Of a DNA stretch of 64,000 nucleotides, positions 5,813 to 61,829 are shown piece after piece; position 1 is the first letter of the stretch, and each line of letters starts with the position of its first letter. This stretch comes from Verrucosispora sp. NA02020. GTDB taxonomy: Bacteria; Actinomycetota; Actinomycetes; Mycobacteriales; Micromonosporaceae. Below the pieces are notes generated by a model. It was not told the DNA's origin. It worked only from the letters and a program-made list of their open reading frames with translations, and searched no databases. The translations under genes and the position numbers were made by a program. Where the stretch lies: the NCBI RefSeq assembly GCF_013364215.1, contig NZ_CP054923.1, positions 992,001 to 1,056,000 on the forward strand, given 5' to 3'.

Positions 5813-5883
5813 CGATCATGGAGTTGTGGTCGCGAGTTTGTGTTGATACGTCCACATCTGCGGCTGCCACGACTCCATGATCG
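5813..5883. repeat. 70-bp inverted-repeat element, copy A
   Basis: The ends are inverted: CGATCATGGAGT at 5813-5824 pairs with 5872-5883. With one wobble position the pairing extends to about 17 bp. The same ends occur at 20283-20352 and 61760-61829. It sits between the convergent GPP34 and DUF397 genes. Possible roles are a bidirectional terminator or a non-autonomous mobile repeat. Confidence 0.75.
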
Positions 5884-5948
5884 ACGCCGGACGGACGGAC
5901 GTCGGCCGCCCGACGCCCGACGTGCGGCGCTCGACGTGGGGTGAGGGG

Positions 5949-6152
5949 TCAGTGGGACAGATGCTCGGTGCGGACGGCGGTGACGAAGGCGGACCAGGCG
6001 GTGGGCGTGACGGTGAGGGTCGGGCCGGTCGGGTCCTTGCTGTCGCGGATGCCGACGACGTCGGACAGGTTGTCGGCGACCTCGACGCAGTCGCCGCCGT
6101 TGGTGCCGCTGCGGGTGCTGGTGCGCCACGTCGCGCCGGTCAGGTCACTCAT
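5949..6152 (-). CDS. DUF397 domain-containing protein
   Basis: 67 residues, beginning MSDLTGATWRTSTRSG. The W(R/K)(T/S)S(T/S)RSG start, the 'NGGDCVEVA' core and the C-terminal 'W.AFV..V' pattern are diagnostic of DUF397, a small family very abundant in filamentous actinobacteria. These proteins are nearly always encoded beside an XRE/DUF5753 regulator and are regarded as its partner or effector in a toxin-antitoxin-like pair. Here the ATG overlaps the end of that regulator gene by 8 bases, so the two are coupled. The start at 6152 gives the canonical N-terminus; a longer in-frame extension is only a shadow. Confidence 0.9.
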   Translation of the reverse strand: MSDLTGATWRTSTRSGTNGGDCVEVADNLSDVVGIRDSKDPTGPTLTVTPTAWSAFVTAVRTEHLSH

Positions 6153-7059
6153 AGCACTCTCCCCGGATGGCATCGATGAGCTCCATCGATTCTCTCTCCC
6201 CGAGCGCGATGGATTCCAGCCCACGCCAGACCCGTACGTAGGCGGCGATCTCGTGCGGCTGGTCGAGATAGAGCGCGCCGGTGAGCCCTTCGACATAGAC
6301 GGTGGGCGGTTCGGACGGGCTTCCGAGCAGGGAATCCGGGAAGTCGAGCAGCACGAAAGTGCCCGCCTCGGCGGCGAGTGGCGGGCCGGCGGCGAGCGGC
6401 AGGACGCGGATCGAGATGTTGTGCCGTTGGCCGACGGCAAGCAGGTGGCGGAGTTGACCGGCCATCACCGGCCGGTCGGGCACCGGGCGGCGCAGCACCG
6501 CCTCGCTCAACATCACGGTCAGTTCCGGAGCGGGTGGAAGGCGCCGGGTCAGTAGTCCCTGCCGCTGGATCCGGAAGTTGACCGCCTTCTTTCGTTCCTC
6601 CTCGCCCAATTCGGGCCGGTTGAGAAGAAAGAGCGCGGTGGCGTACTCGGGAGTCTGTAGTAGTCCCGGCACCAGTTCGGCGTTGTAGTGGCGCACGCTA
6701 CTCGCCACGTTCTCCAGCCCGATGTAGAGCGAGAACCAGGCGGGGATGGACTGGCCGTACGCGTGCCACCATCCCTCGGCCTTGCTGACCTCGGCGAGCC
6801 CGACCAGCACGCTCGCCTGGTCGGGTGTGGCCTGGTAAAGCTCGCAGAGCACGCGCACGTCCGGGCCCCTGGCCGGGGAGAGGCCGCGCTCGATCCGCCA
6901 GATCTTCTGTCGCGAGCAGTCCAACTGCTCGGCTGCCGCCTCGATGCTGACCCTGGCATCGACCCGCAGTTGGGTGAGCAGCCTGCCGAGCTGTCGTCGC
7001 GGGACGGTCGAACCGTTCGTTGCATGCACCGTGCAACACTCCTCAGTTCCAGAATGCAA
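6145..7059 (-). CDS. XRE-family regulator with DUF5753 (Scr1-type) domain
   Basis: 304 residues. An N-terminal Cro/CI helix-turn-helix (~25-80, 'QLGRLLTQLRVDARVSIEAA', 'LDCSRQKIWRIERG') is followed by the ~180-residue DUF5753 domain. Its landmarks 'VRHYNAELVPGLLQTPEYA' and 'LLDFP..PTVYVEGLTGALYLD' are clear. The gene is the first of a pair with the overlapping DUF397 gene. Such pairs are linked to development and antibiotic control in Streptomyces (WhiJ, Scr1/Scr2 type). The start is uncertain: ATG at 7059 or GTG at 7029 are both in frame and both precede the helix-turn-helix. Confidence 0.9.
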   Translation of the reverse strand: MHSGTEECCTVHATNGSTVPRRQLGRLLTQLRVDARVSIEAAAEQLDCSRQKIWRIERGLSPARGPDVRVLCELYQATPDQASVLVGLAEVSKAEGWWHAYGQSIPAWFSLYIGLENVASSVRHYNAELVPGLLQTPEYATALFLLNRPELGEEERKKAVNFRIQRQGLLTRRLPPAPELTVMLSEAVLRRPVPDRPVMAGQLRHLLAVGQRHNISIRVLPLAAGPPLAAEAGTFVLLDFPDSLLGSPSEPPTVYVEGLTGALYLDQPHEIAAYVRVWRGLESIALGERESMELIDAIRGECYE

Positions 7060-7196
7060 CCAAATTCCACCGTCGAGGAAACGTATTGCGAACTCGTTTC
7101 CGCCGGATGCGGAAATGGCGATGGTTGATGGAGTGATGCTATTTGTCGACGCGCAACGCGGGCAAGCGGTAGCGCTCGGTGATTGTGCTCGGGTGT

Positions 7197-7247
7197 TAGG
7201 AGGGGACCCCTACTATGCACGAGGCGTTAATAAGGTGCCCTTCCTTA
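7197..7247. repeat. AGGAGGGG-type palindromic repeat, copy 1 (hybrid arms)
   Basis: An imperfect inverted repeat whose left arm resembles the 'AGGAGGGG.CCCCT' arms of the copies at 25.7 and 39.4 kb. Its right arm, 7222-7246, is identical over 25 bases to the reverse complement of 29466-29490. It overlaps the TAA stop of the phosphoglucomutase gene, so it probably acts as that gene's terminator. The remaining DNA up to 7059 is lower in GC and should carry the promoter of the XRE gene. Confidence 0.7.
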
Positions 7248-8990
7248 CATCCCTAAAGCCCGCGCAACCTCCAGCCGCAACTCTCCGACGGCGCTCTCCG
7301 CGCGAGTACGGGCCGCTGCGACGTCACCGTCGGCGACCTGCTCGACCACCTCCAGGTACGCCTTGAGCTTCGGCTCGGTGCCGGAGGGCCGGATCACCAC
7401 CCGGGCCGCCCCGGTACGCAGGATGATCACGTCCGCCTCGGGCAGCAGGTCCTGTGCTTCGATGACCGGTTGGCCGAGCAGCGTGTCCGGGGTGGCCGCC
7501 CGGATCCGGGCCATCGCGTCGGTGATCAGCCGCAGGTCGTCGACGCGGACCGAGAGTTGATCAGTGTGGTGGACGCCGAACTCGGCGGCCAACTCGTCCA
7601 GCCGGTCGGTGAGCCTACGGCCCTGGGTCTTGAGGTCGGCGGCCAACTCGGCCACGGTCAGCGCGGCGGTGATGCCGTCCTTGTCGCGTACGTGGTCGGG
7701 GGCGACGCAGTAGCCGAGTGCCTCCTCGTAGCCGAACACCAGCGGCGCGGACCCGTCCCCGGCCCGCACGATCCACTTGAACCCGGTCAGCGTCTCGCCG
7801 TACGGCAGGTTCCGGGCGGTGCACATCGCCCGCAGCAGCGACGACGAGACGATGGTGGTGGCGTACAGGCCGGTCACGCCGCGCCGCATCAGGTGGTCGG
7901 CGAGGAGCACCCCGACCTCGTCACCCCGCAGCATCCGCCAGCCCGCACCGCCCGCACCGCCCGCACCGCCCGCACCGCCCGCTGGGCCGCTCGGCCCACC
8001 CGTGACGGGGGCAGAGGGCGCGCCGCCCGGAGTCCGGACCGCTACGGCGCAGCGGTCGGCGTCGGGGTCGTTGGCGATGGCGAGATCCGCGCCGGTGGTG
8101 TCGGCGAGCGCGACCAGCAGGTCCACCGCGCCCGGTTCCTCCGGGTTGGGGAAGCTGACCGTCGGGAAGTCGGCGTCCGGTTCGGCCTGCTCCGGGACCA
8201 CGCCGGGCACCGGGAAACCGGCGGCGGCGAAGGCGGCGGTGAGGACCGCCGCGCCGACGCCGTGCAGCGGCGTGTACGCCACCGTCAGGTCGCGGGATCC
8301 GCCGGGCGACACCACCTGCACCGCCCGTGCCACGTACGCGGCCACCAGGTCGTCACCGAGCACCTCGCCCCCGGGACCGAGTGGCACCCGGCTCAGCGGG
8401 CCGACCGCCCGGATGGCGGCCTCGATGCCGGTGTCGGCCGGCGGCACGATCTGCGCCCCGGCGCCGGACTCCCCGCCCAGCTCGGCACCGAGATAGACCT
8501 TGTAACCGTTGTCCTGCGGCGGGTTGTGGCTCGCCGTCACCATCACCCCGGCGACCGCACCCAGTTGCCGCACCGCGTACGCGAGCACCGGAGTGGGCAG
8601 CGGGCGGGGGAGCAGCAGGGCCGGGCGACCCGCACCGGTGGCCACCCGGGCGGTCTGCTCGGCGAACGCGCGGGAGCCGCGCCGGGCGTCGTACCCGATG
8701 ACCAGCGGGCCGGTGCCGCCCTCGGCGGCGAGCCAGGCGACCAGCCCGGCGGCGGCCTGGGTGACCACGGCGAGGTTCATGCCGTTGGGACCGGCGCGCA
8801 GCGGGCCGCGCAGCCCGGCGGTGCCGAAGGTCAGCGGCCCGGCGAAGCGGTCCGCCAGTTCGGCGGCGCTGTCCGGCAGGCGGTCGAGCACCGCCCGCAG
8901 TTCCGCCTGGTCGGCCGGGTCGGGGTCGTCGGCGAGCCAGCGCTGGGCTTGCTCGCGGATGGTGTCGATGTCAGTGGTCTCCGCCGCCAT
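7245..8990 (-). CDS. phospho-sugar mutase (phosphoglucomutase/phosphomannomutase)
   Basis: 581 residues. Motifs in order are the phosphoserine loop 'VTASHNPPQDNGYKVY', the metal-binding 'NDPDADRCAV', the sugar-specificity 'GYEEALGYCV', and the phosphate-binding 'RPSGTEPKLKAYLE' near the C-terminus. The protein interconverts hexose 1- and 6-phosphates and feeds glycogen, trehalose and cell-wall sugar synthesis. Length matches PgmB/ManB-type long alpha-D-phosphohexomutases of actinobacteria. One oddity is a glycine/alanine insert 'GPAGGAGGAGGAGGAGW', encoded by a 9-base tandem repeat at about 7941-7981, just after the metal-binding loop. It is probably a disordered surface loop. Confidence 0.93.
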   Translation of the reverse strand: MAAETTDIDTIREQAQRWLADDPDPADQAELRAVLDRLPDSAAELADRFAGPLTFGTAGLRGPLRAGPNGMNLAVVTQAAAGLVAWLAAEGGTGPLVIGYDARRGSRAFAEQTARVATGAGRPALLLPRPLPTPVLAYAVRQLGAVAGVMVTASHNPPQDNGYKVYLGAELGGESGAGAQIVPPADTGIEAAIRAVGPLSRVPLGPGGEVLGDDLVAAYVARAVQVVSPGGSRDLTVAYTPLHGVGAAVLTAAFAAAGFPVPGVVPEQAEPDADFPTVSFPNPEEPGAVDLLVALADTTGADLAIANDPDADRCAVAVRTPGGAPSAPVTGGPSGPAGGAGGAGGAGGAGWRMLRGDEVGVLLADHLMRRGVTGLYATTIVSSSLLRAMCTARNLPYGETLTGFKWIVRAGDGSAPLVFGYEEALGYCVAPDHVRDKDGITAALTVAELAADLKTQGRRLTDRLDELAAEFGVHHTDQLSVRVDDLRLITDAMARIRAATPDTLLGQPVIEAQDLLPEADVIILRTGAARVVIRPSGTEPKLKAYLEVVEQVADGDVAAARTRAESAVGELRLEVARALGM

Positions 8991-9036
8991 TGCCTCTTGA
9001 TAGCACGGCGGCGGATCACCGTGGACGTCTCCCCGG

Positions 9037-11157
<2,121 letters not shown>

Positions 11158-11364
11158 AGAAAAGCCACCGGGGGAAGTCGAGGGGGCTGGGACACAACCT
11201 CTCTATCTTGCTGGTTCAGACGCCCGATGCGAAACCCGGCGCGGCGGACGTTTACCGACCGGAACGGTACGTGTGCATGTCCTCACGTCGAGTGTCGGCG
11301 TCGGGCGGCTCAGTGTGCGCTATCCCTCACCCTGTGACCAGCACATTCGTCCTACCATCCGGTG
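11158..11364. promoter_or_regulatory. divergent promoter region, kinase and mutase genes
   Basis: The 207-bp gap between the divergent kinase gene (GTG at 11157) and the mutase gene (ATG at 11365) must carry both promoters. It is less GC-rich than the flanking genes. No clear operator dyad or riboswitch fold was recognised, and individual -10/-35 boxes cannot be placed with confidence. Confidence 0.4.
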
Positions 11365-12951
<1,587 letters not shown>

Positions 12952-13431
12952 GCCGTTCTCGGCACTCTTCCGGTCGCTTCTCGCCACTCTTCCGGTCGCT
13001 GTACGTGTCGACGCGGCCGTCTCCGGGTATCCCGTCCGAATGATCTCGTTGACGCACACCCTGTGCGGTCGAGGACTGTCCGGACGTGTGAACGTCCACC
13101 GGTGCCGATCGCCGTGGGTGGTCGGGTAATTGTCGTACCGTCAGTTCATCGCGCCGACTAATGCGACAATTCGGAACGACGGGCGACGAGTTTCGACAAG
13201 ATTCTCCGCCCGCATCCCCGATTACGCGTTGTAGGAGGTGGGGGGCGGATGGCAGCGTACGAACGCGATCTACCTGCTGTCCCACCCGTCCACGGGCACT
13301 CCAAGCAGGGCATACGTGACGCTGTGCGGTCCGACCATCACCGGAACGAGGTTGCGCAGAGTTACCTTCAGGGGTCTACGCTGTCTGCTGTCCCCGATGA
13401 TCCATCCATTTCTAGTGATCGAGAATTCGAC
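12952..13431 (+). promoter_or_regulatory. 480-bp gap with long leader upstream of the M20 peptidase gene
   Basis: No confident gene. From about 13020 the GC content drops below that of the flanking genes, consistent with promoter and leader DNA. An excellent Shine-Dalgarno AGGAGG at 13233-13238 stands 10 bases before an ATG at 13249 that is in frame with the M20 gene. The 61 codons between 13249 and 13431 have many A/T third positions, unlike genuine genes here. This is either an untranslated leader or a recently extended N-terminus. Confidence 0.5.
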
Positions 13432-14694
13432 GTGACGAGTGCGTTGACCATGCCGACCGGCGAGCAATTGGCGTCGTCCTGGCCCGAGGCGCCACCGACC
13501 GGTGGCCAGCCCCTGCCGTCCGAGCTGGACCACCTGCTCGCCCTCCGGGTACCGGGCCTTATCGCCACGCGCCGTCACATTCACGCGCATCCGGAGCTGT
13601 CCGGTTCGGAGTTCGACACCGCCGCCCTGATCGCCCGGGAACTCACCCTGGCCGGGCTCAGCCCCCGCATGCTGCCGAAGGGCAACGGGGTCATCTGCGA
13701 CGTGAACGGCCGCCCCGACGGGCCGGTGATCGCGCTGCGCGCCGACATCGACGCGCTGCCGCTGACCGACGTCAAGGACGTGCCGTACCGCTCCACCGTG
13801 GACGGGGTCTGCCACGCCTGCGGGCACGACGTGCACACCACGATCCTGCTCGGTGTCGGCATGCTGCTCGCCCAACTCGCCGACCTGGGCGAGCTGCCCG
13901 GCCGGGTCCGGTTGATCTTCCAGCCGGCCGAGGAGATCCTGCCCTGCGGATCGCTCGAAGTGATCGAGGCGGGCGGACTGGACGACGTGGTGCAGATCTT
14001 CGCGCTGCACTGCGACCCGAACCAGCCGGTCGGCAAGGTCGGCCTGCGGGTCGGGCCGATCACCGCCGCCGCCGACAACGTGACCGTCCGGCTCACCGGG
14101 CCGGGCGGGCACACCGCCCGCCCGCACCTGACCGTCGACCTGGTCGACGCGCTCGGCCGGCTGATCACCGAGGTGCCCGCGCTGATCAGCCGCCGGGTGC
14201 CGGCCAACAGCGGGCTGCTGCTGGTCTTCGGTCACGCCTCCGCCGGCACCCGTTACAACGTCATCCCCTCCGAGGCGTCCGCCTCCGGCACGCTGCGGGT
14301 GATGGACCGGGACGCCTGGGAACAGGCCCCGAAGATCGTCACCCAGGTGGTCCGGGACGTGATCGCCCCCACCGGGGCCACGGTCGACCTGGAGTACCTG
14401 CGGGGCCGCCCGCCGGTCTGCAACGACGCGGCGGCGATCAACGTGCTGACCTCGGCCACCGTCGCCGCGCTCGGCCCGGAGGGCGTCGCCGAGACCCCGC
14501 AGAGCATGGGCGGCGAGGACTTCTCCTGGTATCTGGAGTACGTCCCCGGCGCGCTGGCCCGGCTCGGGGTCGGCCGCTCCGGGCCGAACGTGGACCTGCA
14601 CCGGGCGTCGTTCGACGTGGACGAACGGTGCATCCCGGCGGGCGTACGACTCATGGTGCAGACCGCGCTCCAGGCACTGGCGGCGGTTCGCTGA
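13432..14694 (+). CDS. M20 family metallopeptidase / amidohydrolase
   Basis: 420 residues if started at GTG 13432 (481 from the ATG at 13249, which has the better Shine-Dalgarno). The fold is an amidohydrolase of the AmiA/HipO type (N-acyl-amino-acid or peptide amide hydrolysis). Visible are 'RRHIHAHPELSG', 'ALRADIDALPL', the metal ligands in 'CHACGHDVHTTILLG', 'IFQPAEE' with the catalytic acid, and the lid domain with 'GPGGHTARPH'. A C-terminal 'MGGEDFSWYLE' completes the metal site. No signal peptide is apparent, so it is probably cytoplasmic. Its 3' end overlaps the opposing DUF4349 gene by 44 bases. Confidence 0.92.
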   Translation: MTSALTMPTGEQLASSWPEAPPTGGQPLPSELDHLLALRVPGLIATRRHIHAHPELSGSEFDTAALIARELTLAGLSPRMLPKGNGVICDVNGRPDGPVIALRADIDALPLTDVKDVPYRSTVDGVCHACGHDVHTTILLGVGMLLAQLADLGELPGRVRLIFQPAEEILPCGSLEVIEAGGLDDVVQIFALHCDPNQPVGKVGLRVGPITAAADNVTVRLTGPGGHTARPHLTVDLVDALGRLITEVPALISRRVPANSGLLLVFGHASAGTRYNVIPSEASASGTLRVMDRDAWEQAPKIVTQVVRDVIAPTGATVDLEYLRGRPPVCNDAAAINVLTSATVAALGPEGVAETPQSMGGEDFSWYLEYVPGALARLGVGRSGPNVDLHRASFDVDERCIPAGVRLMVQTALQALAAVR

Positions 14695-15664: not shown

Positions 15665-15777
15665 CGATGTTCCCTTCTTCGACCCTGAGCGGGTGATAGC
15701 TCGGACGTCGAGCGCTGCCTCCCCGGTTCCGGCAGACTGCGCTCAGGACGTCACGATTCGATATGGGAGGCATCACG

Positions 15778-16410: not shown

Positions 16411-16414
16411 GTCG

Positions 16415-18709: not shown

Positions 18710-18815
18710 GGCGATGACGATAGCCCGCCGGGCGGGTGGGGGAGAATACGACGGTGCGTGTCGGACGCGTCGGGGAGAAGAAAGTCACTGTGAGCATGGA
18801 CGAAGGGCGGTCGTG

Positions 18816-20219
18816 GTGAGCCAGATCGTGATCATCGGCGGGGGGCCGGCCGGTTACGAGGCCGCGCTGGTCGCCGCTCAACTGGACGCCGCCGTCACCG
18901 TGGTGGAGGCCGACGGCGCGGGCGGAGCCTGCGTGCTGTCCGACTGCGTACCGTCGAAGACGTTCATCGCCAGCTCCGAGGTGGTGACCGGATATCGGGA
19001 CACCGAGGTGTTCGGGGTGCACTCCGACGGCCTGGAGGCGGTCACCGTCGACGCCCGGGCGGTCCACGAGCGGGTCAAGCGGCTCGCCCTGGCGCAGTCG
19101 TCCGACATCCACGCGAAGCTGCTCAAGGCCGGGGTCACCTTCGTCTCCGGGCAGGCCCGGCTGGGTGAGGACACCCTCGGCCACACCCACCGGGTGATCG
19201 TCACGCCCGACGGCGGCGCGGCACCGTACTCGATCAGTGCCTCGACCGTGCTGGTCGCCACCGGCGCGACCCCCCGCCAACTGCCCACCGCCGTGCCCGA
19301 CGGCGAGCGCATCCTCACCTGGCGGCAGGTGTACGACCTGCCCGAGCTGCCCGAGCACCTGATCGTGGTCGGCTCCGGCGTGACCGGCGCCGAGTTCGCC
19401 AGCGCCTACCTGGCGATGGGGGTCGAGGTCACCCTGGTCTCCAGCCGGGACCGGGTGATGCCGCACGAGGACGCCGACGCGGCGCAGGCGATCGAGCGGG
19501 TCTTCCGGGCCCGGGGCATGAGCATCCTGAACAACTCCCGCGCCGAGGGGGTCCGCCGGACCGACGACGGCGTCGAGGTCGTCCTCTCCGACGGCCGCAA
19601 GGTGTACGGCTCGCACGCGCTGATCGCGGTCGGCTCGATCCCGAACACCGAGGAGCTGGGCCTGGCCGAGTACGGCGTCACGCTGGCCCGGGGCGGTTAC
19701 GTGACCGTGGACCGGGTCTCCCGCACCAACGTCCCCGGCATCTACGCGGCCGGTGACTGCACGGGTGTCCTGCCGCTGGCCAGTGTCGCCGCGATGCAGG
19801 GCCGGATCGCCATGTGGCACGCGCTCGGCGAGGCGGTCCGGCCGCTGCGGCTGCGTACCGTCTCGGCGAACGTCTTCACCGACCCCGAGCTGGCCACCGT
19901 GGGTGTGTCGCAGGACGAGATGGACGCCGGCAAGGTGCCGGCCCGGCAGGTGATGCTGCCGTTGGCCGGTAACGCCCGGGCGAAGATGGACGAGGTGGCC
20001 GACGGTTTCGTCAAGCTGTTCTGCCGTCCGGCCAGCGGTCAGGTGATCGGTGGCGTGGTGGTGGCGCCGAAGGCGAGCGAGCTGATCCTGCCGATCACGA
20101 TGGCGGTGGAGAACAACCTCACCGTCAACGAGCTGGCCCAGACCATCACCATCTATCCCAGCCTCTCCGGCTCCCTCACCGAAGCCGCCCGCCAACTCAT
20201 GCTCCACGAACTCGAATAA
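18816..20219 (+). CDS. lpdA: NAD(P)H-quinone dehydrogenase, LpdA-like flavoprotein
   Basis: 467 residues from GTG. Pyridine nucleotide-disulfide oxidoreductase architecture: FAD motif 'IIGGGPAGYEAAL' (~6-18), redox pair Cys39/Cys44 in 'GGACVLSDC', NAD(P) motif 'IVVGSGVTGAEFASAY', and 'GIYAAGDCTG'. In true lipoamide dehydrogenases the C-terminus has a catalytic His-Glu pair (HPTLSE). Here the corresponding stretch reads 'IYPSLSGSLTEAAR', so both are missing. That matches mycobacterial LpdA (Rv3303c), a quinone reductase without lipoamide dehydrogenase activity. No E2/E1 genes are nearby, which agrees. Confidence 0.9.
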   Translation: MSQIVIIGGGPAGYEAALVAAQLDAAVTVVEADGAGGACVLSDCVPSKTFIASSEVVTGYRDTEVFGVHSDGLEAVTVDARAVHERVKRLALAQSSDIHAKLLKAGVTFVSGQARLGEDTLGHTHRVIVTPDGGAAPYSISASTVLVATGATPRQLPTAVPDGERILTWRQVYDLPELPEHLIVVGSGVTGAEFASAYLAMGVEVTLVSSRDRVMPHEDADAAQAIERVFRARGMSILNNSRAEGVRRTDDGVEVVLSDGRKVYGSHALIAVGSIPNTEELGLAEYGVTLARGGYVTVDRVSRTNVPGIYAAGDCTGVLPLASVAAMQGRIAMWHALGEAVRPLRLRTVSANVFTDPELATVGVSQDEMDAGKVPARQVMLPLAGNARAKMDEVADGFVKLFCRPASGQVIGGVVVAPKASELILPITMAVENNLTVNELAQTITIYPSLSGSLTEAARQLMLHELE

Positions 20220-20282: not shown

Positions 20283-20352
20283 CGATCATGGAGTTGTGCC
20301 TGTCGATAGGTGCACTTCGGCGGCTTTTGTCGAAGCCATAACACCATGATCG
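20283..20352. repeat. 70-bp inverted-repeat element, copy B
   Basis: The ends CGATCATGG (20283-20291) and CCATGATCG (20344-20352) match copies A and C; on the left, homology to the other copies continues as AGTTG. It lies between the convergent lpdA-like and DUF998 genes and supplies the last 21 codons and the stop of the DUF998 gene. Short GCCGGGTTC direct repeats follow it. Confidence 0.78.
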
Positions 20353-21017
20353 CCGGGTTCGCCGGGTTCGCCGGGGAGAGGCCCGGGGCGGGGTGTGGGG
20401 AGGAGGGTGGCGGCCAGGACGGTGAGCAGGGCTACCTCGGCGAGGATGAGGGCGCGCTCGATCAGGCCGTAGTAGGCGCGGTCGCCGGGGTAGGCGGACC
20501 AGATCATCGCGGCGGCGAGGAGCAGGCTGGCGACGGCCAGCGCGCGCAGCCACCGGGCGGTGCGAGCGGTGCTGGCGGTGCGAGCGGTGGTGGGCAACTG
20601 GGCGGCGATCAGCCAACCGGCGAGCGGCAGTGCCAGGAAGGCGACCACTGAGGCATACCGGTGCAGGTAGGCGGCGGTGTCCATCTCGGTGCCGGGCGGG
20701 TTGGTGGGTACCAGTCCGGCCAGCAGCAGCCCCCCGGCCCAGGCGGCGAGCAGCACCTGGGCCGCGCCGACGCGACCACGGCCGGTACCGCCGGGTCGGT
20801 CGAGGCGGCGTAGTCCCAGGACGAGCACGGCGGACGCCCCGCCGAGGGTGAGCATGGCGAGGTGGATGGCCCCACCGGACTCGGAGACGGCGTAGTCGCT
20901 GACGGTCAGGCTCAACGGGTCCAGGTCCTCGACACCCGCGTGGCCGACCACGGCGAGCAGCGCCGCGAGGACGATGCCGCCGAGCGCCAGCGTCGCGCTG
21001 TTCCGGGTTGCAGGCAT
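20286..21017 (-). CDS. DUF998 family integral membrane protein
   Basis: 243 residues with about six hydrophobic helices ('LALGGIVLAALLAVVGHAG', 'LTLGGASAVLVLGLR', 'VLLAAWAGGLLLAGLVP', 'ASVVAFLALPLAGWLIAA', 'ALAVASLLLAAAMIW', 'ALILAEVALLTVLAATLL'). The 'DPLSLTVSDYAVSESGGAIH' loop is typical of DUF998 membrane proteins, whose function is unknown. The C-terminal tail after the last helix is unusual: a GEPGEPG linker and then 21 residues encoded by the inverted-repeat element. The normal C-terminus was probably shorter or different. Confidence 0.85.
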   Translation of the reverse strand: MPATRNSATLALGGIVLAALLAVVGHAGVEDLDPLSLTVSDYAVSESGGAIHLAMLTLGGASAVLVLGLRRLDRPGGTGRGRVGAAQVLLAAWAGGLLLAGLVPTNPPGTEMDTAAYLHRYASVVAFLALPLAGWLIAAQLPTTARTASTARTARWLRALAVASLLLAAAMIWSAYPGDRAYYGLIERALILAEVALLTVLAATLLPTPRPGPLPGEPGEPGDHGVMASTKAAEVHLSTGTTP

Positions 21018-47393: not shown

Positions 47394-47468
47394 GCCCTTT
47401 GCTCTGCTTCACCCGACGCAACAGAATTCATGCGTCTTCGGTGCGTGGGGTGAAGCAGAGCAAAGGGC
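47394..47468. repeat. 21-bp perfect inverted repeat (TTTGCTCTGCTTC hairpin)
   Basis: 47394-47414 pairs exactly with 47448-47468 (arm core TTTGCTCTGCTTCACCC). Inside the 33-base loop is a second small stem, GACGCA (47415-47420) / TGCGTC (47431-47436). It lies between the membrane protein and uppS genes, both on the plus strand. The rest of 47324-47640 shows no gene. Confidence 0.75.
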
Positions 47469-49309: not shown

Positions 49310-49364
49310 TCCTGGCGTGGAGCCGGCGCGGTCGTCGGGCGGGGTCAGCGTTCGGCGCGCGGGG

Positions 49365-50530: not shown

Positions 50531-50582
50531 ATGAGACGATAGGTGCTCAGCTGCGTCACGCGCTCGGTGCAAGGGGGGAGTG

Positions 50583-50927: not shown

Positions 50928-50955
50928 CGAGCGGGCGAGGAACCGGGGCCGCCGG

Positions 50956-52985: not shown

Positions 52986-53019
52986 TGCCCGTTTAGGGCG
53001 TTTTAGAGCTGTTATTTGC

Positions 53020-53035
53020 CGTGACCCATGTCACA
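53020..53035. promoter_or_regulatory. candidate CRP-type operator upstream of the transglycosylase-like gene
   Basis: CGTGA-N6-TCACA dyad; nine of ten half-site bases match TGTGA-N6-TCACA. It lies 243 bases before the secreted SLT-like gene, in an AT-rich patch right after the PhoH stop. CRP control of cell-wall remodelling genes (rpfA) is known in mycobacteria. Confidence 0.5.
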
Positions 53036-53277
53036 ATCGAGGCTGGCGGTTTCCCATCAGCCTCACCGTGCGCGATGGTGTCCAGCGGGCGCCCACGCAC
53101 CTGACGCATCGTTGGTGATCGTTCGTCACTCCACGAGGGGGTCGGCCGATTCGCCGGGAAGCGGACGGGGTGCGTCTTCGGCCACCGGCCTCACCGGTGG
53201 CGGGCGCTCGCGGCACGCCTCGGCCCGGTATGGCCGTGGTCACGCCGCGTCCCTGACCCCGACGAAGGGATCACCAC

Positions 53278-53961: not shown

Positions 53962-53983
53962 GTCCCACCTGAGCACCTTGACG

Positions 53984-54016
53984 ACGGCGGTACGCGGCAC
54001 TCGCGTACCGCCGTCT
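53984..54016. terminator. intrinsic terminator-like hairpin after the SLT gene
   Basis: 14-bp perfect arms (GACGGCGGTACGCG, 53984-53997, with 54003-54016) around a 5-base loop, 23 bases after the stop. Confidence 0.75.
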
Positions 54017-54076
54017 TCGTCCCCGGTGGTGGGCGAAAAGTGGCGGCTGCCCGCGATTGCTGATAGCTCTTGACGG

Positions 54077-54730
54077 GTGACCCTGCAGCCCGGAAGCGGC
54101 GACCCCCACCGGTTCGGCACCGATGCGTTCTACGCCTCCATCGGCCGGGCCTTCGTCGCCATGTGCGCGGTGGTGCCGGTCCTCTTCCTGATCGAGGGTC
54201 TCGACCAGTGGCTCGGCGCCGGCTTCGACGCCGCCGCCGGCATCATCCCGCAGCGCATCGACGGGCTGGACGGCGTCTTCTTCTCACCGTTCCTGCACCA
54301 CGGCTTCGACCACCTCTACAGCAACAGCATCCCGCTGATCCTGCTCGGCACCTTCGTGCTGGCCGCGGGCGCCCGCCGGTTCCTCTGGTCGACCCTGGTG
54401 ATCGTGCTGGTCAGCGGGCTGGGTGTGTGGTTCACCGGCTCGCCCAACACGATCGTGGTGGGCGCCAGCGGTGTCATCTTCGGCTACCTCGGCATCCTGC
54501 TGACCCGGGGCATCTTCGAGCGGAGCTGGTGGAACTTCGCCGTCTTCCTGCTGGTCGGCCTCCTCTACGGCGGCCAGTTGGTCGGCGTCCTGCCCACCGA
54601 CGAGCGGATCTCCTGGCAGGGACACCTGTTCGGGCTGCTCGGCGGCATCGTGGCCGCGATCATCTTCCGGCGTCGCCGGACCGACCTCGACGGGCCGTAC
54701 CGCTCCGAGTCCCCGATGACGATGCCCTGA
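54077..54730 (+). CDS. rhomboid family intramembrane serine protease
   Basis: 217 residues from GTG. Rhomboid motifs: 'LHHGFDHLYSNSIPLILLG', catalytic Ser in 'VVGASGVIFGYLG' and catalytic His in 'ISWQGHLFGLLGG'. About six membrane helices are present. It cleaves membrane proteins within the bilayer; the substrate is unknown. Its last 71 bases overlap the convergent DMT transporter gene. Confidence 0.93.
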   Translation: MTLQPGSGDPHRFGTDAFYASIGRAFVAMCAVVPVLFLIEGLDQWLGAGFDAAAGIIPQRIDGLDGVFFSPFLHHGFDHLYSNSIPLILLGTFVLAAGARRFLWSTLVIVLVSGLGVWFTGSPNTIVVGASGVIFGYLGILLTRGIFERSWWNFAVFLLVGLLYGGQLVGVLPTDERISWQGHLFGLLGGIVAAIIFRRRRTDLDGPYRSESPMTMP

Positions 54731-55733
54731 CCCCGTCGCCGTCACGCCGCCGGGCCCGAGCGGCCGCGCCGATCCGGCCACCGAGCGCGGCGACAGCCAC
54801 CGCCACCAGCGTCAGCGCCGCGCCGAGCACCGTACTCGTCGCCGGGCGGGTCTGCGCGGAGGGAAGCAGCACGTCCAGCAGCACCGCGCCGACGACCTGA
54901 CCGGCGACGGTGGCCAGGCCGAGCAGCAGCACGCCGGTGAGGCGGACCACCGCCGCCGCCACCGCGATGAAGGTCACCCCGATCGGCCCGCCCAGATAGA
55001 GCCACGGCTCGGCGGGCAGGTCACCGGCGGGCACACCGCGTACGGCGAGGCTGACCACGAAGACGGCCAGCAGGGCGGCCGTACCGACGGCGAAGTTGAC
55101 CAGCGTGGCGGTCACCGTGCTCCGGGTGGCCTCGCGGACCCGCCCGTTCACCGCCTGCTGCCAGGCCACCCCGACGCCGGCCAGCAGCGGCAGCAGGGCC
55201 AGACCGATGGTGGCCGGTTCGGCCAGCCGATCTCCGACGGCCAACAGCACCGCGGCCACGGTGAGGACCGCACCGGCGAGCCGGGCGAGGGTCACCGGCT
55301 GCGGCCCGCTCGGGCCGACCCCGGCCCGGTCCACGACGAGACTGCTGCCGGACTGTCCGGCGACCACCGCCACGGTGAACACGGCGACGCCGAGCGTACC
55401 GACGGTGGCGCTCTGGGTGAAGACGAGGAACGCTCCGCAGACCCCGCCGAGGCACTGCCAGAGCCGCAACCTGCCGGTGCCGAGCGCGGCGCGCAGCGCG
55501 GTCAGGCCCCGACGCCCGTTCCCGGTGGCGACGCCGAGCACCACCAGCACCAGCAGCCCCAGGCCGAACGAGACCAACGCGGCGGCGACCCCGTCGTCGA
55601 GCCGTACGCCCAACTCGCCGTTGATCCGCGACTGGGTGGCGACGGCGACCCCGGCGACGGCTCCCAGCGCCACGGCACCGGCCCGCCGACCGGCCGACAC
55701 CGTCGGCCCGGTCGCCGTCGCGCCCTGACTCAA
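54660..55733 (-). CDS. DMT family transporter (YdcZ/DUF606 type)
   Basis: 357 residues from a TTG at 55733 whose sequence TTGA overlaps the glpX stop, so it is coupled to glpX. About ten helices in two DUF606-like repeats ('[17 protein letters not shown]', '[18 protein letters not shown]'). Both repeats share the 'Q..(I/V)NG.(L/V)' motif at the start of a helix. The substrate is unknown. The C-terminal 40 residues are a basic Gly/Ser-rich tail that runs into the rhomboid gene on the other strand. Confidence 0.85.
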
Positions 55734-56761
55734 GCCTGTTGGTCCAGGGGGCGGCCGTCGAAGTCCACCGCCGAATAGAGCGCCAGCTTCTCCAACTTGT
55801 GGAACGAGTCGATCACCCGGATCGTGCCGCTCTTGGACCGCATCACGATCGACTGCGTGTACGCCCCACCCGAGCGGTAGCGCACACCCTTCAGCAGGTC
55901 ACCGGAGGTGACACCGGTCGCCACGAAGAAGCAGTTGTCCCCGGTGACCAGGTCGTCGGTGGTGAGCACCCGGTCCAGGTCGTGCCCGGCGGCGAGCGCC
56001 TTCTCCCGCTCGGCGTCGTCGCGTGGCCAGAGCTTGGCCTGCATCATCCCGCCCATGCACTTGAGCGCGCAGGCGGCGGTGATCCCCTCCGGGGTCCCGC
56101 CGATGCCCATCAGCACGTCGACGTCGGACTCGCCCCGGGCGGCGGCGATGACACCGGCGATGTCGCCGTCGGAGATGAACCGGATGCCCGCCCCGGTACG
56201 CCGGATCTCCTCCACCAGCCCGTCGTGCCGGGACCGGTCGAGTACGCAGACCGTCACCTCGTCGAGGCCGGTGCCCTTGACCTTGGCGATGCGGCGCAGG
56301 TTGTCGGCCACCCCGGCGTTGATGTCGACCACGTCCGCGTACGCCGGGCCGACCGCGAGCTTCTCCATGTAGAACACGGCGCTCGGGTCGAACATCGCAC
56401 CCCGTTCGGCGACCGCCAGCACCGCGAGCGCGTTCGGCATGCCCTTGCTCATCAGCGTGGTGCCGTCGATCGGGTCGACCGCGACGTCCACCTCCGGGCC
56501 GGTGCCGTCGCCGACCTCCTCGCCGTTGAAGAGCATCGGGGCGTTGTCCTTCTCGCCCTCGCCGATCACCACGACACCCTTCATCGGGATCGAGTTGATC
56601 AGCTTGCGCATGGCGTCGACGGCGGCGCCGTCGCCGCCCTCCTTGTTACCCCGGCCGACCCAGCGACCGGCGGCCATCGCCGCGGCCTCGGTCACCCGGA
56701 CCAGGTCGAGGGCGATGTTGCGGTCGAGGTTCTGTGGGGTACGCGTCCTGGCGGTTGTCAT
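55730..56761 (-). CDS. glpX: fructose-1,6-bisphosphatase, class II
   Basis: 343 residues from ATG 56761 with GAGGAGG upstream. GlpX motifs: '[18 protein letters not shown]', '[12 protein letters not shown]' with Glu ligands, '[18 protein letters not shown]' (DPxDGT) and '[19 protein letters not shown]'. It dephosphorylates fructose 1,6-bisphosphate, the main FBPase of actinobacteria. It is divergent from a DUF4245 gene, as in mycobacteria, and cotranscribed with a DMT transporter. Confidence 0.97.
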
Positions 56762-56909
56762 GAACGGCTCCTCCTCGCGGCGGTGCGGGGTTGACCGGGC
56801 CGGGTCCTGCCGGCTTCGTTCCTGATCCTCACACGATGGCGGACCCGCGACCGGGGCGGGGCGGTGATGGGCCGGATACCGCCGGTCGGGCGGCTGCGAG
56901 AATGGCCCG

Positions 56910-57572
56910 GTGGAACCCGCACAGCCTGCCGACCGCGCAACCGCAGACCAGCCGTCGACGGCCGAGCAGCCGACCGTCGACCGGGCCGCCGGACCGGACG
57001 TACCCGAGGACCGGCCGGAGCCGACGCGGACCGCCGGGGAACCGGCGGCCGAGACCGCCCCGGGACGCTCCGAGCGCAGACCCCGCGACATGGCCATCTC
57101 GCTGCTGGTGCTGCTGGTCCCGATCGCCCTGCTGATCGCCTTCTCCCGGGGTTTCCTCGGTGGGGACGCGCCGAGCACGGTGAACCCGACCCCCGCCTTC
57201 GATCAGGCGCGCTCGGCCGCCGCCTTCCCGGTCTCCGAGCCGTCCGGGCTGCCCGACGGGTGGAAGACCGTACGTGCGGCGTACCGGACCACGGAGGAGG
57301 GCGCGACCCTGCGGGTGGGCTATCTCACTCCCGAGGGGCGTGGTCTGCAACTCGTGCAGAGCAACGTTCCGCCGGAGCGGCTGCTGCCCACCGAGCTGAC
57401 CGAGCAGGGGCGACCGCAGGGGCAGGCCGACCTCGGGTCGGGCGCCTGGCAGCGGTACACCGGGCGGGGCAACGAGCAGGCATTGGTGTTGCTCGAACCG
57501 GAGCGGACCGTGATCGTCGTCGGGGACGCCCGGGACAACGAACTGCGCGAGATGGCCACCGCCGTCGACTGA
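56910..57572 (+). CDS. DUF4245 domain-containing membrane protein
   Basis: 220 residues from GTG. A disordered Pro/Ala/Glu-rich cytoplasmic part (~1-60) is followed by one membrane helix ('[20 protein letters not shown]') and an outside domain with '[18 protein letters not shown]', '[18 protein letters not shown]' and '[18 protein letters not shown]'. This fits DUF4245, whose gene is habitually divergent from glpX in actinobacteria. Its function is unknown. Confidence 0.87.
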
Positions 57573-57666
57573 GCCTGCTTCGTGGTGATTGCGGGCGGCG
57601 TCGGCAGGGAACAGGAGAGGCGAGCCACCGGCGCGGGAAGCGTCGGGTGACCGCTGGGAGACACCG

Positions 57667-58500
57667 ATGACCATTCGCAGACTGAGCGCCGGTCTCATGG
57701 CCGCCGCCTTGCTCACGCCTGGAGTCGCCGCCTGCACAACCTCCGGTGACACCGCGCCCACCACCACCGCCACACCGTCCGCCACCGGCTCCGGCGCACC
57801 CGCCGCGGACTCCGAGGCCAAGCAGGCGCTGCTGGACTCGACCAAGGAGATCAGCAACGGCAACTTCCGGTTCACCATGTCCGGCGTCGGCTCGGTCGCC
57901 GAGGGCCAGGTGCACCAGCCGAGCCAGAGCGCCGAGATCCGGGTACGCCTGGGCGAGCCGACCGACGACCTGGCGATCAGCCTCGACCTGATCCACGCCA
58001 AGCCGGACAGCTGGGTCAAGGTGGACCTCAAGGGCGGCGCCGCGACCAGCGTGCCCGGCCTCGACCGGCTGAACCTCGGCAAGTTCCAGCACCTCGACCA
58101 GAGCCGGATCCAGGGTGACCGCAACCTCGGCTTCGACTTCGACAAGGTCGACCCGGCCGGGAGCGCCGCGCTCACCCAGGCGGTCACCGAGGTGCAGCGT
58201 ACCGGTGACGGCACCTTCTCCGGCACCATCGACGTCTCCAAGGCCGCCGAGGCAGGCTCGCTGGACCAGGGCGTGGTCACCGCGCTCGGCCCGGAGGCCA
58301 ACGCGGTGCCCTTCACCGCCACCACCGACGCGCAGGGCCGCCTCACCGAACTGGTGCTGCGGATGCCGCCGACGGGGGCCGCCGCCGGCCAGGAGATCAA
58401 GATGACGTACAGCGACTACGGCAACGCGACCGCCGCGCAGAAGCCCCCGGCCGACCAGGTCGTCGAGGCGCCGCCGGAGTTGTACAACCTGTTCAAGTAA
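57667..58500 (+). CDS. LppX_LprAFG-type lipoprotein
   Basis: 277 residues from ATG. Signal peptide with lipobox 'LLTPGVAACTT' (Cys ~23). The remainder, after a Thr/Ser/Pro linker, is the LppX/LprG-like half-barrel ('TKEISNGNFRFTMSGVGSVA', 'DSWVKVDLKGGA', 'LTELVLRMPPTG'). Members bind and carry lipids across the cell envelope in mycobacteria. Here the lipid is unknown. A strong hairpin follows the gene. Confidence 0.88.
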   Translation: MTIRRLSAGLMAAALLTPGVAACTTSGDTAPTTTATPSATGSGAPAADSEAKQALLDSTKEISNGNFRFTMSGVGSVAEGQVHQPSQSAEIRVRLGEPTDDLAISLDLIHAKPDSWVKVDLKGGAATSVPGLDRLNLGKFQHLDQSRIQGDRNLGFDFDKVDPAGSAALTQAVTEVQRTGDGTFSGTIDVSKAAEAGSLDQGVVTALGPEANAVPFTATTDAQGRLTELVLRMPPTGAAAGQEIKMTYSDYGNATAAQKPPADQVVEAPPELYNLFK

Positions 58501-58525
58501 GCGGTCCCTCGCGGGGCGGCGACGA

Positions 58526-58559
58526 GACGCGGCGGGAGCCTTCCGGCTCCCGCCGCGTC
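58526..58559. terminator. 15-bp perfect hairpin, bidirectional terminator
   Basis: GACGCGGCGGGAGCC (58526-58540) pairs with 58545-58559 around TTCC. It lies between the convergent lipoprotein and xseB genes. Confidence 0.82.
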
Positions 58560-58581
58560 GTGTCCGGGGTACGTCCAGGCG

Positions 58582-58803
58582 TCAGGTCGTCGACTCCTGG
58601 CGGGCGGCGTCGATCCGGGCACGGGCGCCGTCGAGGCGACTCTGGCAGATCACCGCCAACGCCTCACCGCGCTCCCACAGGGCCAGCGACTCCTCCAGCG
58701 ACGTCCCGCCGGCCTCCAGCCGCTCCACCACCGACGCCAGTTCGGCACGAGCCTGTTCGTAGCTGAGCCGCTCGTCCGACCCGTCGGTCTTCTCGTCAGT
58801 CAT
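58582..58803 (-). CDS. xseB: exodeoxyribonuclease VII small subunit
   Basis: 73 residues from ATG 58803. The pattern 'LSYEQARAELASVVERLEAG' followed by 'SLEESLALWERGEALA' and 'CQSRLDGARARID' is the XseB signature. It forms the stalk of the XseA-XseB single-strand exonuclease. It follows xseA by 31 bases in the same direction. Confidence 0.95.
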   Translation of the reverse strand: MTDEKTDGSDERLSYEQARAELASVVERLEAGGTSLEESLALWERGEALAVICQSRLDGARARIDAARQESTT

Positions 58804-58834
58804 CGCTTGCCTCTCCCACAACAGGGCCGACAGG

Positions 58835-60085
58835 TCAGGGGTTCACGGTGGCCGACAGTTCGCCGTCGGCGACGCGTACCCGCAGCGGGTCGCCGGGTGC
58901 CACGTCGCCGGCGGCGCGGACCACGTGGCCGTCGGCGCGCTGCACGATGGCGTACCCCCGGTCCAGGGTGGCGGCCGGTGAGAGCGCGCGCAGCCGGGCC
59001 AGGGTGTGCCGCAGGTCGTCGTCGGCGGCGGCGATGCGGTGGTCCAGGCAGCGCACGGCCCGCTGGCGCAGGGCGGCCAGGTCACCGGCCCGCTGCTCCA
59101 CCATCACCTGCGGGCGGGCCAGCGCCGGACGGGAGCGCAGCGCCTCGATCCGGTGCGACTCGCGGTCGACCAGGTGGTGCACCGCGCGCCGCAGCCGGTG
59201 GCGGGCCTGCCCGATCAGGCGTACCTCCTCGGCCAGGTCGGGCACCACCCGCTTGGCCGCGTCGGTCGGGGTCGACGCGCGGACGTCGGCCACGTAGTCG
59301 ACCAGCGGCGCGTCCGTCTCGTGGCCGATCGCGCTGACCACCGGCGTACGGCAGGCGAACACCGCCCGGCAGAGGGCCTCGTCGGAGAAGGGCAGCAGGT
59401 CCTCGATGCCGCCACCGCCCCGGGCCAGGATGATCACATCGATGCTCGGGTCGCCGTCCAGCACCTTGAGCGCGTCCACGATCTGCGGCACGGCACCGGG
59501 GCCCTGCACGGCCACGTTCACCGTCCGGAACTCCACCGCCGGCCAGCGGCGACGGGCGTTGGTGAGCACGTCCCGCTCGGCGGCGCTGGCCCGGCCGGTG
59601 ATCAGCCCGATCCGCTGCGGCAGGAACGGCGGCCGGCGCTTGCGGGCCCGGTCGAACAGCCCCTCGGCGGCGAGCAGCTTCTTGAGCTTCTCCAGCCGTG
59701 CCAGCAGCTCACCGAGACCCACCTGCCGGATCTCGTCGGCCCGCAGGCTGAGCGTGCCCCGGGCGGCATAGAACTCCGGCTTGGCGTGCAGCACGACGCG
59801 GGCGCCCTCGCGCAGCTCCGGCGCGCCGGTGTCGAGCACGTCGCGGTTGGTGGTGACGGTCAGGCTCAGATCCGCCGACGGGTCACGCAACGTGAGGAAC
59901 ACGGTGCTGGCGCCGGGCCGCCGGCTGATCTGCGCCACCTGCCCGTCGACCCAGACCCAGCCCAGGCGCGCCACCCAGGCGCCGATCTTCTGACTGACCA
60001 CGCGCACCGGCCACGGCTCCTCCGCCGTGCTGGCGCCTGTGCCGGCAGCCGTCCCGCTCCCGGTCGCCGTCCCACCCGTACTCAC
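58835..60085 (-). CDS. xseA: exodeoxyribonuclease VII large subunit
   Basis: 416 residues from GTG. After a Thr/Gly-rich leader come the OB-fold ('[20 protein letters not shown]') and the catalytic region: '[20 protein letters not shown]', '[20 protein letters not shown]' and '[20 protein letters not shown]'. The coiled-coil C-terminal part binds XseB ('[17 protein letters not shown]'). The enzyme degrades single-stranded DNA from both ends. It is divergent from ispH. Confidence 0.95.
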
Positions 60086-60205
60086 CCGCCCACCCTAAGC
60101 CCACCCACCGACCGCCTCGCTGATCACGACCGGGGCGGCGGCCGACGGGGTCGGCGGCGGGGCGCGCGCGGTGCCGGGGGCGCGGGCGGCACGTACGATG
60201 GGGGC

Positions 60206-61195
60206 GTGACTGAGGGCGAGAGGACTTCCGGGACCGGTAAGCGCGTGCTGCTCGCGAAGCCCCGTGGATACTGCGCGGGCGTCGACCGGGCGGTGCAGAC
60301 CGTCGAGGAGGCGCTCAAGCTCTACGGTGCCCCGATCTACGTCCGCAAGGAGATCGTGCACAACAAGCACGTGGTGCGGACCCTGGAGGCCCAGGGCGCG
60401 ATCTTCGTCGAGGAGAACGAGGAGGTCCCCGAGGGGTCCACCGTCATCTTCTCCGCGCACGGCGTGGCGCCCGAGGTCTACGAGCAGGCGAAGGAGCGGT
60501 CGCTCAAGGCGATCGACGCGACCTGCCCGCTGGTGACCAAGGTGCACCACGAGGCCAAGCGGTTCGCCGCCGAGGACTACGACATCCTGCTCATCGGCCA
60601 CGAGGGTCACGAGGAGGTGATCGGCACCTCCGGCGAGGCCCCCGACCACATCCAGTTGGTGGACGGCCCCGAGGACGCCGACCGCGTCACCGTGCGCGAC
60701 CCGAGCAAGGTCGTCTGGCTGTCGCAGACCACGCTCTCGGTCGACGAGACCCTGGAGACCGTGGCCCGGCTCAAGAAGCGGCTGCCACTGCTCCAGTCCC
60801 CGCCCAGCGACGACATCTGCTACGCCACCAGCAACCGGCAGCACGTGGTCAAGGAGATCGCGGCCGAGTGCGACGTGGTGCTCGTGGTGGGGTCGCGCAA
60901 CTCCTCCAACTCCGTACGGCTGGTCGAGGTGGCCCTGGACGCCGGTGCCCGCGCCGGACACCTGGTCGACTTCGCCCACGAGATCGACGACGCCTGGCTG
61001 ACCGACGCCCGGACGGTGGGCCTCACCTCCGGCGCGAGCGTGCCGGAGGAACTGGTGCAGCAGGTGCTCGCGCACCTCGCCGAGCGCGGCTTCGCCGACG
61101 TCGAGGAGGTGGTGACCGCCAACGAGCGCCTCACCTTCTCGCTGCCGCAGGAACTCAAGCGCGACATGAAGGCCGCTGCGGCGGCCCAGAGCTGA
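60206..61195 (+). CDS. ispH: 4-hydroxy-3-methylbut-2-enyl diphosphate reductase
   Basis: 329 residues from GTG (an upstream ATG runs into a stop at once). The three cysteines that hold the 4Fe-4S cluster are at ~23 ('[12 protein letters not shown]'), ~107 ('[14 protein letters not shown]') and ~205 ('[11 protein letters not shown]'). It makes IPP and DMAPP in the last step of the MEP pathway, which feeds the UppS-type prenyltransferase in this window. It is divergent from xseA with 120 bases between. Confidence 0.96.
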
Positions 61196-61248
61196 TCCGT
61201 CGGCACGCGCCGATGGAACGGTTGACCTTCCGGACACGTCAGACCGGC

Positions 61249-61704
61249 ATGAGGACCCTTCGGATCGCCGCCACCGCGCTGATCGTCTGCACGGCGCTCG
61301 TCGCCTGCGGCGGTCAGGACGCCGGGACCGGCCCCACCACCGCCCCGACCCCGACGGGAGCGTCACCCGTGACCGAGCTGCCGACCCCGGATCCGACCGG
61401 CCCCGTGCCCCCGCCCTCCGACCCGGTGGACCCGACCGCCCCGGTCAGCCCGCCGCCGGCCGGCACGACCCGGGGCGTGCCGACCTCGCCGCCGGTCACC
61501 GGTGAGATGACGCTCACCGGTCGGGTCGAGGCCGGCGTGGAGCCCGGCTGCCTGCTGCTCGACGGCTACCTGCTGTTGGGCGGGCCACGTGACGTACTCA
61601 CCTCCGGTGCCTCGGTGACGGTGACCGGTCGGCCCAACCCGAGCCTGATGACGACGTGCCAGCAGGGCACCCCCTTCCAGGTCGCCACCGCCAAGCGCGG
61701 CTGA
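61249..61704 (+). CDS. small lipoprotein, hypothetical
   Basis: 151 residues from ATG 61249, which puts a lipobox Cys at ~20 ('LIVCTALVACGG'); an ATG at 61213 would make the leader too long. A Pro/Thr-rich linker precedes a ~65-residue beta-rich domain ('MTLTGRVEAGVEPGCLLLDG', 'TSGASVTVTGRPNPSLMTTC') with two Cys. It may be a small surface-exposed OB-like domain. The family is not recognised. Confidence 0.75.
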   Translation: MRTLRIAATALIVCTALVACGGQDAGTGPTTAPTPTGASPVTELPTPDPTGPVPPPSDPVDPTAPVSPPPAGTTRGVPTSPPVTGEMTLTGRVEAGVEPGCLLLDGYLLLGGPRDVLTSGASVTVTGRPNPSLMTTCQQGTPFQVATAKRG

Positions 61705-61759
61705 CCCACCCCACCCGCGCTGCGGTACGCGCCCCCGGGCGCGCACCGCAGCGCCCTGT

Positions 61760-61829
61760 CGATCATGGAGTTGCGGCAGCGGCAGAAGGCGCGTATCACC
61801 CCCAACTGCTCGCCAAAAGTCCATGATCG
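61760..61829. repeat. 70-bp inverted-repeat element, copy C
   Basis: CGATCATGG (61760-61768) and CCATGATCG (61821-61829) bound a 52-base interior, with AGTTG after the left end as in copies A and B. It lies between the convergent small lipoprotein and S8 peptidase genes. Confidence 0.78.

What the first reader, a model, noticed from the sequence alone, without database searches (positions are those of the whole stretch)
5813..61829. A family of ~70-bp inverted repeats with CGATCATGG ends, always between convergent genes
Three copies (5813-5883, 20283-20352, 61760-61829) share inverted CGATCATGG ends and AGTTG after the left end, but have different interiors of near-constant length. All three sit between convergent genes, all in the same orientation. 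Their ends are far better conserved than their centres. They could be bidirectional terminators, RNA stem elements or a non-autonomous mobile repeat. No target-site duplications were seen.
Basis: partly seen in the sequence, partly recalled or inferred. Interest (0 to 1): 0.7.

Follow-up and report, generated by a model that had tools for sequence, protein, structure and literature searches.

The report
Spaced palindromes marking Micromonospora gene ends
The three repeats belong to a family of fixed-length, mirror-ended DNA elements that sit just behind genes in Micromonospora and some related bacteria and look like docking sites for an unknown DNA-bending protein.

Summary
In detail: three copies in the window, 0.00 expected. 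The genome (a Micromonospora) holds 57 full-length copies and very few degraded ones. A profile finds the element in 92 of 121 genus genomes, and relatives in two other families of the order. 'Always between convergent genes' fails genome-wide (19 of 50; 53 of 276 gaps are convergent). The better rule is 'behind a gene's 3' end' (median 66 bp here, 18 bp in other species). Four features favour recognition as DNA: length fixed at 68-69 bp around a poorly conserved interior; interior A/T patches every 9.5-10 bp; arms uniform within a genome but shifted between genomes; little sign of compensatory pairing within the genome (the mixed alignment is less clear). Both flanks, read inward, are C-rich and G-poor. 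RAYT-type transposases are absent from 8 of 10 copy-rich genomes tested. Best reading: paired half-sites for a dedicated DNA-bending protein that blocks transcription from both sides. Protein and block are inferred. At window site 3 the neighbours have hairpins of their own, so the element is not the only terminator there. Sister families C and D, with other fixed lengths, share the genome.

The parts
5813..5883 (.). Copy 1 of element A: arms 5814-5829 and 5867-5882, interior 5830-5866 (69 bp between the outer GATC ends inclusive); between predicted genes 5038-5712 (+) and 5949-6152 (-)
20283..20352 (.). Copy 2 of element A: arms 20284-20299 and 20336-20351 (68 bp); between predicted genes 18813-20219 (+) and 20286-21017 (-), whose stop TGA lies in the left arm; an element stands at the same locus in L069, L119, L127 and G021
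61760..61829 (.). Copy 3 of element A: arms 61761-61776 and 61813-61828 (68 bp); between predicted genes 61249-61704 (+) and 61927-63999 (-)
61717..61754 (.). GC-rich hairpin behind the left gene of site 3 (read from the sequence by eye, not folded)
61871..61907 (.). GC-rich hairpin behind the right gene of site 3; a similar hairpin by pattern in 25 of 27 orthologous gaps
47394..47468 (.). One copy of sister family D (core 71 bp, arms CCTTTGCTCTGCTTC); 12 places in the genome, all of the same length

Best explanation
Each element is a DNA site for a dedicated, still unidentified sequence-specific protein. Two subunits or dimers bind the inverted arms (CGYCGATCATGGAGTTGTGGY) at a fixed total of 68-69 bp, and the stretch between them bends or wraps, with A/T-rich minor grooves facing one side every helical turn; the interior halves differ, so the complex has a polarity. 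Sitting behind stop codons in stretches that are C-rich and G-poor on both incoming strands, the complex would stop RNA polymerase from either side, probably together with Rho. Shown: arms, fixed length, phasing, polarity rule, 3'-end placement, C-rich flanks, arm shifts between genomes. Inferred: the protein, the bending, the block to transcription and Rho.
For: Length 68 or 69 bp in 46 of 50 copies around an interior with little consensus; 113 of 128 in other species; 68-70 bp in 20 of 20 in G031 and in G021, 66 bp in 19 of 20 in G281. A/T periodicity 4.9 at 9.5-10 bp against at most 1.14 in 300 shuffles. Arms uniform in a genome but different between genomes, with one locus half shifted (L220/L314). 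No pairing excess over arm positions 9-16 in the own genome. Few wrecks: 57 full copies, then one half copy and one lone arm before the weak rows. Nearest gene 3' end at a median of 66 bp (43 of 50 copies have one) and 18 bp (83 of 91). Inward flanks C 0.50, G 0.25, against skew -0.02 after stops without element. Less structure directly after stops followed by an element: MFE -10.6 against -16.5, z 0.08 against -0.46.
Against: No protein was identified. At site 3 a hairpin of the right gene's own persists in 25 of 27 orthologous gaps while the element is found only in the own genome: the element is an extra there. 29 of 121 genus genomes showed no match at E 1e-6, so it is dispensable or replaceable. 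The C-rich bias is also present on sides facing gene starts (-0.31 against -0.38), and convergent gaps without the element in other species have a weaker bias of the same sign (-0.13/+0.12). On the mixed alignment, percentage paired, cells changed on both sides and the covariation score exceed all 500 shuffles, though the number of pairs with two-sided changes does not (168 of 500); single arm positions (12, 17, 18) covary in some sets. Gene calls come from my own script.
Confidence: 0.4

Rival explanations
1. A REPIN-like non-autonomous mobile repeat: arms are kept because an enzyme acting in trans needs them, copies survive behind genes because insertions elsewhere are removed, and there is no host duty.
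For: Two conserved inverted ends with a highly diverse short spacer is how REPINs are described (PMC8049555, passages). Several families share the habitat, and at the site-3 gap other species carry C-like, D or H palindromes (L285, L290, L300, L295). In G024 and its kin interiors of different copies resemble one another. Copy number differs widely among species.
Against: PF01797 (Y1/RAYT transposases) is absent from 8 of 10 copy-rich genomes and present in 5 of 8 genomes without exact-profile hits. REP singlets, described as common remnants of REPINs, are almost lacking here. The A/T phasing and fixed length need a further cause. Five loci compared showed no clean empty site. Other transposases were not searched for.
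Confidence: 0.3
2. An RNA-level element: a long bidirectional hairpin that ends or protects transcripts from both sides.
For: All three window copies fold far better than shuffles on both strands, z -3.7 to -5.7. Placement behind stops. Stem-loops can mark Rho-dependent 3' ends in E. coli, as cited in a Streptomyces Term-seq paper (PMC8269248, passages). Some covariation on the mixed alignment.
Against: Arm letters are conserved, not just pairing; within the own genome arms do not pair above chance; mirrored interior positions are less complementary than chance in most length classes; chimeric halves fold as well. No T-run. No Rfam family reached the gathering score in the window.
Confidence: 0.18
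3. A supercoiling site: gyrase or another general chromatin protein wraps the phased DNA where convergent transcription piles up positive supercoils, as proposed for BIME-type repeats in E. coli (recalled).
For: Phased A/T patches suggest wrapping. Convergent gaps are enriched: 19 of 50 against 53 of 276 gaps, and 50 of 92 against 74 of 335 in other species.
Against: Most own-genome copies are not between convergent genes. Long sequence-specific arms that shift between genomes fit a dedicated partner better than a housekeeping enzyme.
Confidence: 0.1

Closest known systems
REPINs (REP doublets forming hairpins) with RAYT transposases
   Same: Two inverted conserved ends around a short, highly diverse spacer; extragenic; many copies; recognisable at the same locus in several species
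   Different: No RAYT-type gene in 8 of 10 copy-rich genomes; fixed total length and helically phased spacer; almost no single-arm remnants
Bidirectional intrinsic terminators of convergent genes
   Same: Symmetrical, stable hairpin on either strand, located behind stop codons
   Different: No T-run; arm sequence conserved across loci; interior not built to pair; coexists with other hairpins at site 3
Rho-dependent terminators
   Same: C-rich, G-poor approach on both strands
   Different: A conserved, spacing-fixed palindrome is not part of that kind (recalled); Rho dependence untested
E. coli BIME/REP gyrase sites (recalled)
   Same: Extragenic palindromic repeats near transcription-unit ends; hint of DNA wrapping
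   Different: Other sequence, fixed spacing of long arms, arm letters specific to lineages; gyrase binding untested

Membership tests
REPIN | Two inverted conserved sequences separated by a short, highly diverse spacer | tested here: met
   (50 copies); definition from passages of PMC8049555
REPIN | Duplicated by a RAYT (Y1 transposase) encoded in the genome | tested here: not met
   no PF01797 match in 8 of 10 copy-rich genomes, own genome included
REPIN | Each end is itself a REP, a short imperfect palindrome (recalled) | tested here: inconclusive
   No obvious palindrome inside the arm by eye; no computation made
Intrinsic terminator | Stable GC-rich RNA hairpin | tested here: met
   three window copies, both strands
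Intrinsic terminator | U-rich tract directly behind the hairpin | tested here: not met
   flanks of 50 copies are GC-rich (CGYC on either side)
Rho-dependent terminator | C-rich, G-poor leader before the end | tested here: met
Rho-dependent terminator | Termination depends on Rho | not testable with these tools
   needs an experiment
MITE | Target-site duplication | tested here: inconclusive
   none seen by eye in the flanks; no clean empty site among five loci
MITE | A related autonomous transposon with the same ends | not tested
   only the gene between two close copies and the half copy were looked at
BIME-2 / gyrase site | Binding or cleavage by DNA gyrase | not testable with these tools
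   needs an experiment
Known RNA family (Rfam 15) | Match at the gathering score | tested here: not met
   0 in the window; seven loci, matches over elements only far below gathering scores

The most novel reading that the evidence does not exclude
Micromonospora and relatives carry a system of gene-end markers: several families of palindromic sites (A 68-69, B 67-68, C 60-61, D 71, H 52 bp in the copies seen), each with its own arms and fixed spacing, each read by its own co-evolving DNA-bending protein that blocks transcription from both sides. I know of no bacterial transcription boundary of this protein-built, spacing-defined kind.
Probability: 0.25. Interest if true: 0.85.

Novelty: new variant of a known kind. 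Interest (0 to 1): 0.66.

Why it matters
How transcription stops in GC-rich actinobacteria, where hairpins with U-tracts are not the rule, is poorly understood. If these sites are protein-bound boundaries, they are a ready bait for a new gene-end factor, with 57 natural test sites in one genome. If they are mobile instead, they are REPIN-like populations without the usual enzyme, which also needs an explanation.

Tried and rejected
RNA structure of the interior: whole elements fold only slightly better than with shuffled interiors (mean z -0.38 to -0.68) and not better than chimeras of halves (z +0.11 and +0.21). A transposase between close copies: the ORF between the two copies of L020 does not look like one to me (DUF559-like is recalled). 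An insertion sequence splitting the half copy at 6441589: none beside it; its other arm is degraded. Viral origin: 0 stretches in viral contigs for one pattern. Empty sites: of the loci compared I aligned five; losses were ragged. Wider spread: 2 of 396 phylum genomes, both of the genus, but that search scored only 11 candidates per genome and would miss variant arms. Literature: the 16-base arm is in no paper of the library; CGATCATGG is in 130 papers, 20 listed, none with a relevant title; word searches showed no description in the entries listed. Of papers I saw passages of PMC8049555 and PMC8269248, otherwise listings only.

Corrections on checking: my notes say 58 full-length copies with 7 variant arms; the rows give 57. 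Of these, 51 have exact arms (L271 is the one that one search counted but did not list) and 6 have variant arms, two of them identical. The site-3 survey first covered only gaps in one orientation; it was completed for 27 of 30 loci and with the profile for all 30.

Full report
What is there. The three copies are as reported. In the window's genome (7.28 Mb) GATCATGG-N40-65-CCATGATC has 51 places and the reversed control none. A sequence-only profile from 86 copies (50 own, 36 of others) finds 57 full-length copies, 51 with exact and 6 with variant arms (rows recounted). Scores then fall from E 1e-9 to a half copy (1e-5), a lone arm (5e-4) and weak rows.

Who has it. L064 (genome G024, window's genus) and L115 (M. 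chokoriensis) are identical over the printed element and flanks, which fixes the genus. 92 of 121 genus genomes match at E 1e-6. In the order 62 of 298 match at 1e-4: 36 of the genus, one of another genus of the family, 20 of family f16 and 5 of f10. Family names are not given; I read copies from G179, G256, G281, G371 and G374 only, so weak single hits elsewhere are unchecked.

Anatomy. Of 50 own copies 28 are 68 bp, 18 are 69, three 67, one 66. The first eight bases of each arm are fixed by the pattern; conservation goes on to about base 17 and outward as CGYC. The interior has little consensus except A/T patches near 24-26, 34-35 and 44-46. Their periodic power at 9.5-10 bp is 4.9 against at most 1.14 in 300 interior shuffles, over 46 copies. 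The patches recur in 128 copies from other species and in G031 and G021 (20 copies each), and are weaker in G281. That length stays so constant while the interior diverges suggests selection on arm spacing (inference).

A polarity. On one strand the two outer patches are both A-rich or both T-rich in 31 of 50 own and 81 of 128 other copies; T-left/A-right occurs once in each set, A-left/T-right 9 and 26 times. Mirrored positions 23-34 are less complementary than with right halves dealt anew: z -4.4 and -2.4 in own copies of 68 and 69 bp, -4.4 and -2.4 in others of 69 and 70 bp, but -0.9 in others of 68 bp. Relatedness may inflate the mixed set. Direction shows no clear link to genes.

DNA or RNA. 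The window copies fold well as RNA. In the own genome arm positions 9-16 pair at 0.80 and 0.79 against 0.79 and 0.79 expected, although position 12 is high in one length class; positions 12, 17 and 18 are high in other species' sets. On the mixed alignment three of five measures exceed all 500 shuffles, further pair types are reached by 3 and pairs with two-sided changes by 168. Part of this lies at position 17, where the own genome prefers C and others T, so it can reflect shifts between genomes. Arms are GATCTTGG in G021, GATCATGC in G031, GATCATGGGG in G281 (20 copies each) and mostly GATCTTGC in four copies of G179. At one locus shared by eight species the G031 copy has one arm of each kind. 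Over 101 orthologous pairs with flanks under 97% identical, arms are 0.86, interiors 0.61 and adjacent 32-bp flanks 0.50 identical; random pairs give 0.85, 0.39 and 0.43. Pairs are not independent and copies were picked by their arms.

Where it sits. Own genome, 50 of 57 copies: 19 convergent, 24 tandem, 7 divergent. Among gaps of at least 68 bp in the same loci, which include the elements' own gaps, 53 of 276 are convergent. Other species: 50 of 92 convergent against 74 of 335 gaps; 36 copies near locus ends were skipped. G031 6, G021 8, G281 9 of 20. Distance to the nearest 3' end: median 66 bp (43 of 50 have one) and 18 bp (83 of 91). Genes come from my own script, so divergent cases may hide missed genes.

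C-rich surroundings. Read inward, both flanks are C-rich in every context, over about 100 bp in the own genome and 50 bp in others; sides facing gene starts show it too. Sixty bases after stops have skew -0.02 without (n 205) and -0.32 with (n 55) an element. Convergent gaps without it have -0.02/-0.02 in own loci (n 40) and -0.13/+0.12 in other species (n 30). This resembles Rho-loading leaders in both directions (inference).

Not simply the terminator. At site 3 both neighbours have hairpins. In 27 of 30 orthologous loci both genes were found; the right gene's hairpin pattern is in 25, other palindromes in four (C-like L285, L290; H L295; D L300), and element A only in the own genome. So the element is an extra there. 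In general, genes followed by an element have less structure after the stop (n 44 against 196).

Sister families. Scans gave B (67-68 bp, 19 copies in hand, some next to an A copy), C (60-61 bp in 8 of 9), D (71 bp in 6 of 6) and H (52 bp in 3 of 3). In the own genome C has 29 places of 58-59 bp by a shorter pattern and D 12 of one length. Inward skew: C -0.45, B -0.22, D -0.08, H -0.12, so the C-rich setting is not shared by all.

Mobility. PF01797 is missing in 8 of 10 copy-rich genomes and present in 5 of 8 poor ones. Other enzymes were not sought.

Verdict. Geometry, placement and lineage-specific arms are best explained by a dedicated DNA-binding, DNA-bending protein at gene ends. That it stops transcription is the likeliest use, not a shown one. 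A REPIN-like origin with another enzyme is the main rival and could be true at the same time.

Noticed in passing
window 47394-47468: A copy of palindrome family D (CCTTTGCTCTGCT arms); the genome has 12 places, all of exactly the same length with differing centres.
   Followed up: partly
own genome, 29 places listed; e.g. L018 4883, L034 5094: Palindrome family C (TTGATCAAG arms, 58-59 bp by this pattern), with strongly C-rich inward flanks in the nine copies in hand.
   Followed up: partly
L096 7582, L117 6369, L104 3986, L175 3448, L079 6002, L107 4796, L129 5628, L102 3493: Palindrome family B (GATCTTGCA arms) stands within about 15-30 bp of an A copy in tandem in several Micromonospora loci.
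   Followed up: partly
G000:C1 about 169-243 kb and 318-393 kb: Three C places recur at an offset of exactly 149,334 bp and an identical A copy at 149,613 bp, which suggests a large duplication or an assembly artefact.
   Followed up: no
L353-L372 (G281): In genome G281 of another family many interiors carry two same-strand GACACG-like hexamers about one helical turn apart, placed to one side of the centre.
   Followed up: no
L057, L071, L072, L105, L109, L168, L176, L220: One element stands at the same locus in eight species; in L057 and L109 it lies between genes resembling an MFS transporter and a PLP enzyme (names recalled), with predicted frames ending or starting inside the arms.
   Followed up: partly
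L035 645, L040 757, L059 257: Near-perfect hairpins sharing ATGTAAGGAGGGG arms occur in the own genome (family F).
   Followed up: no
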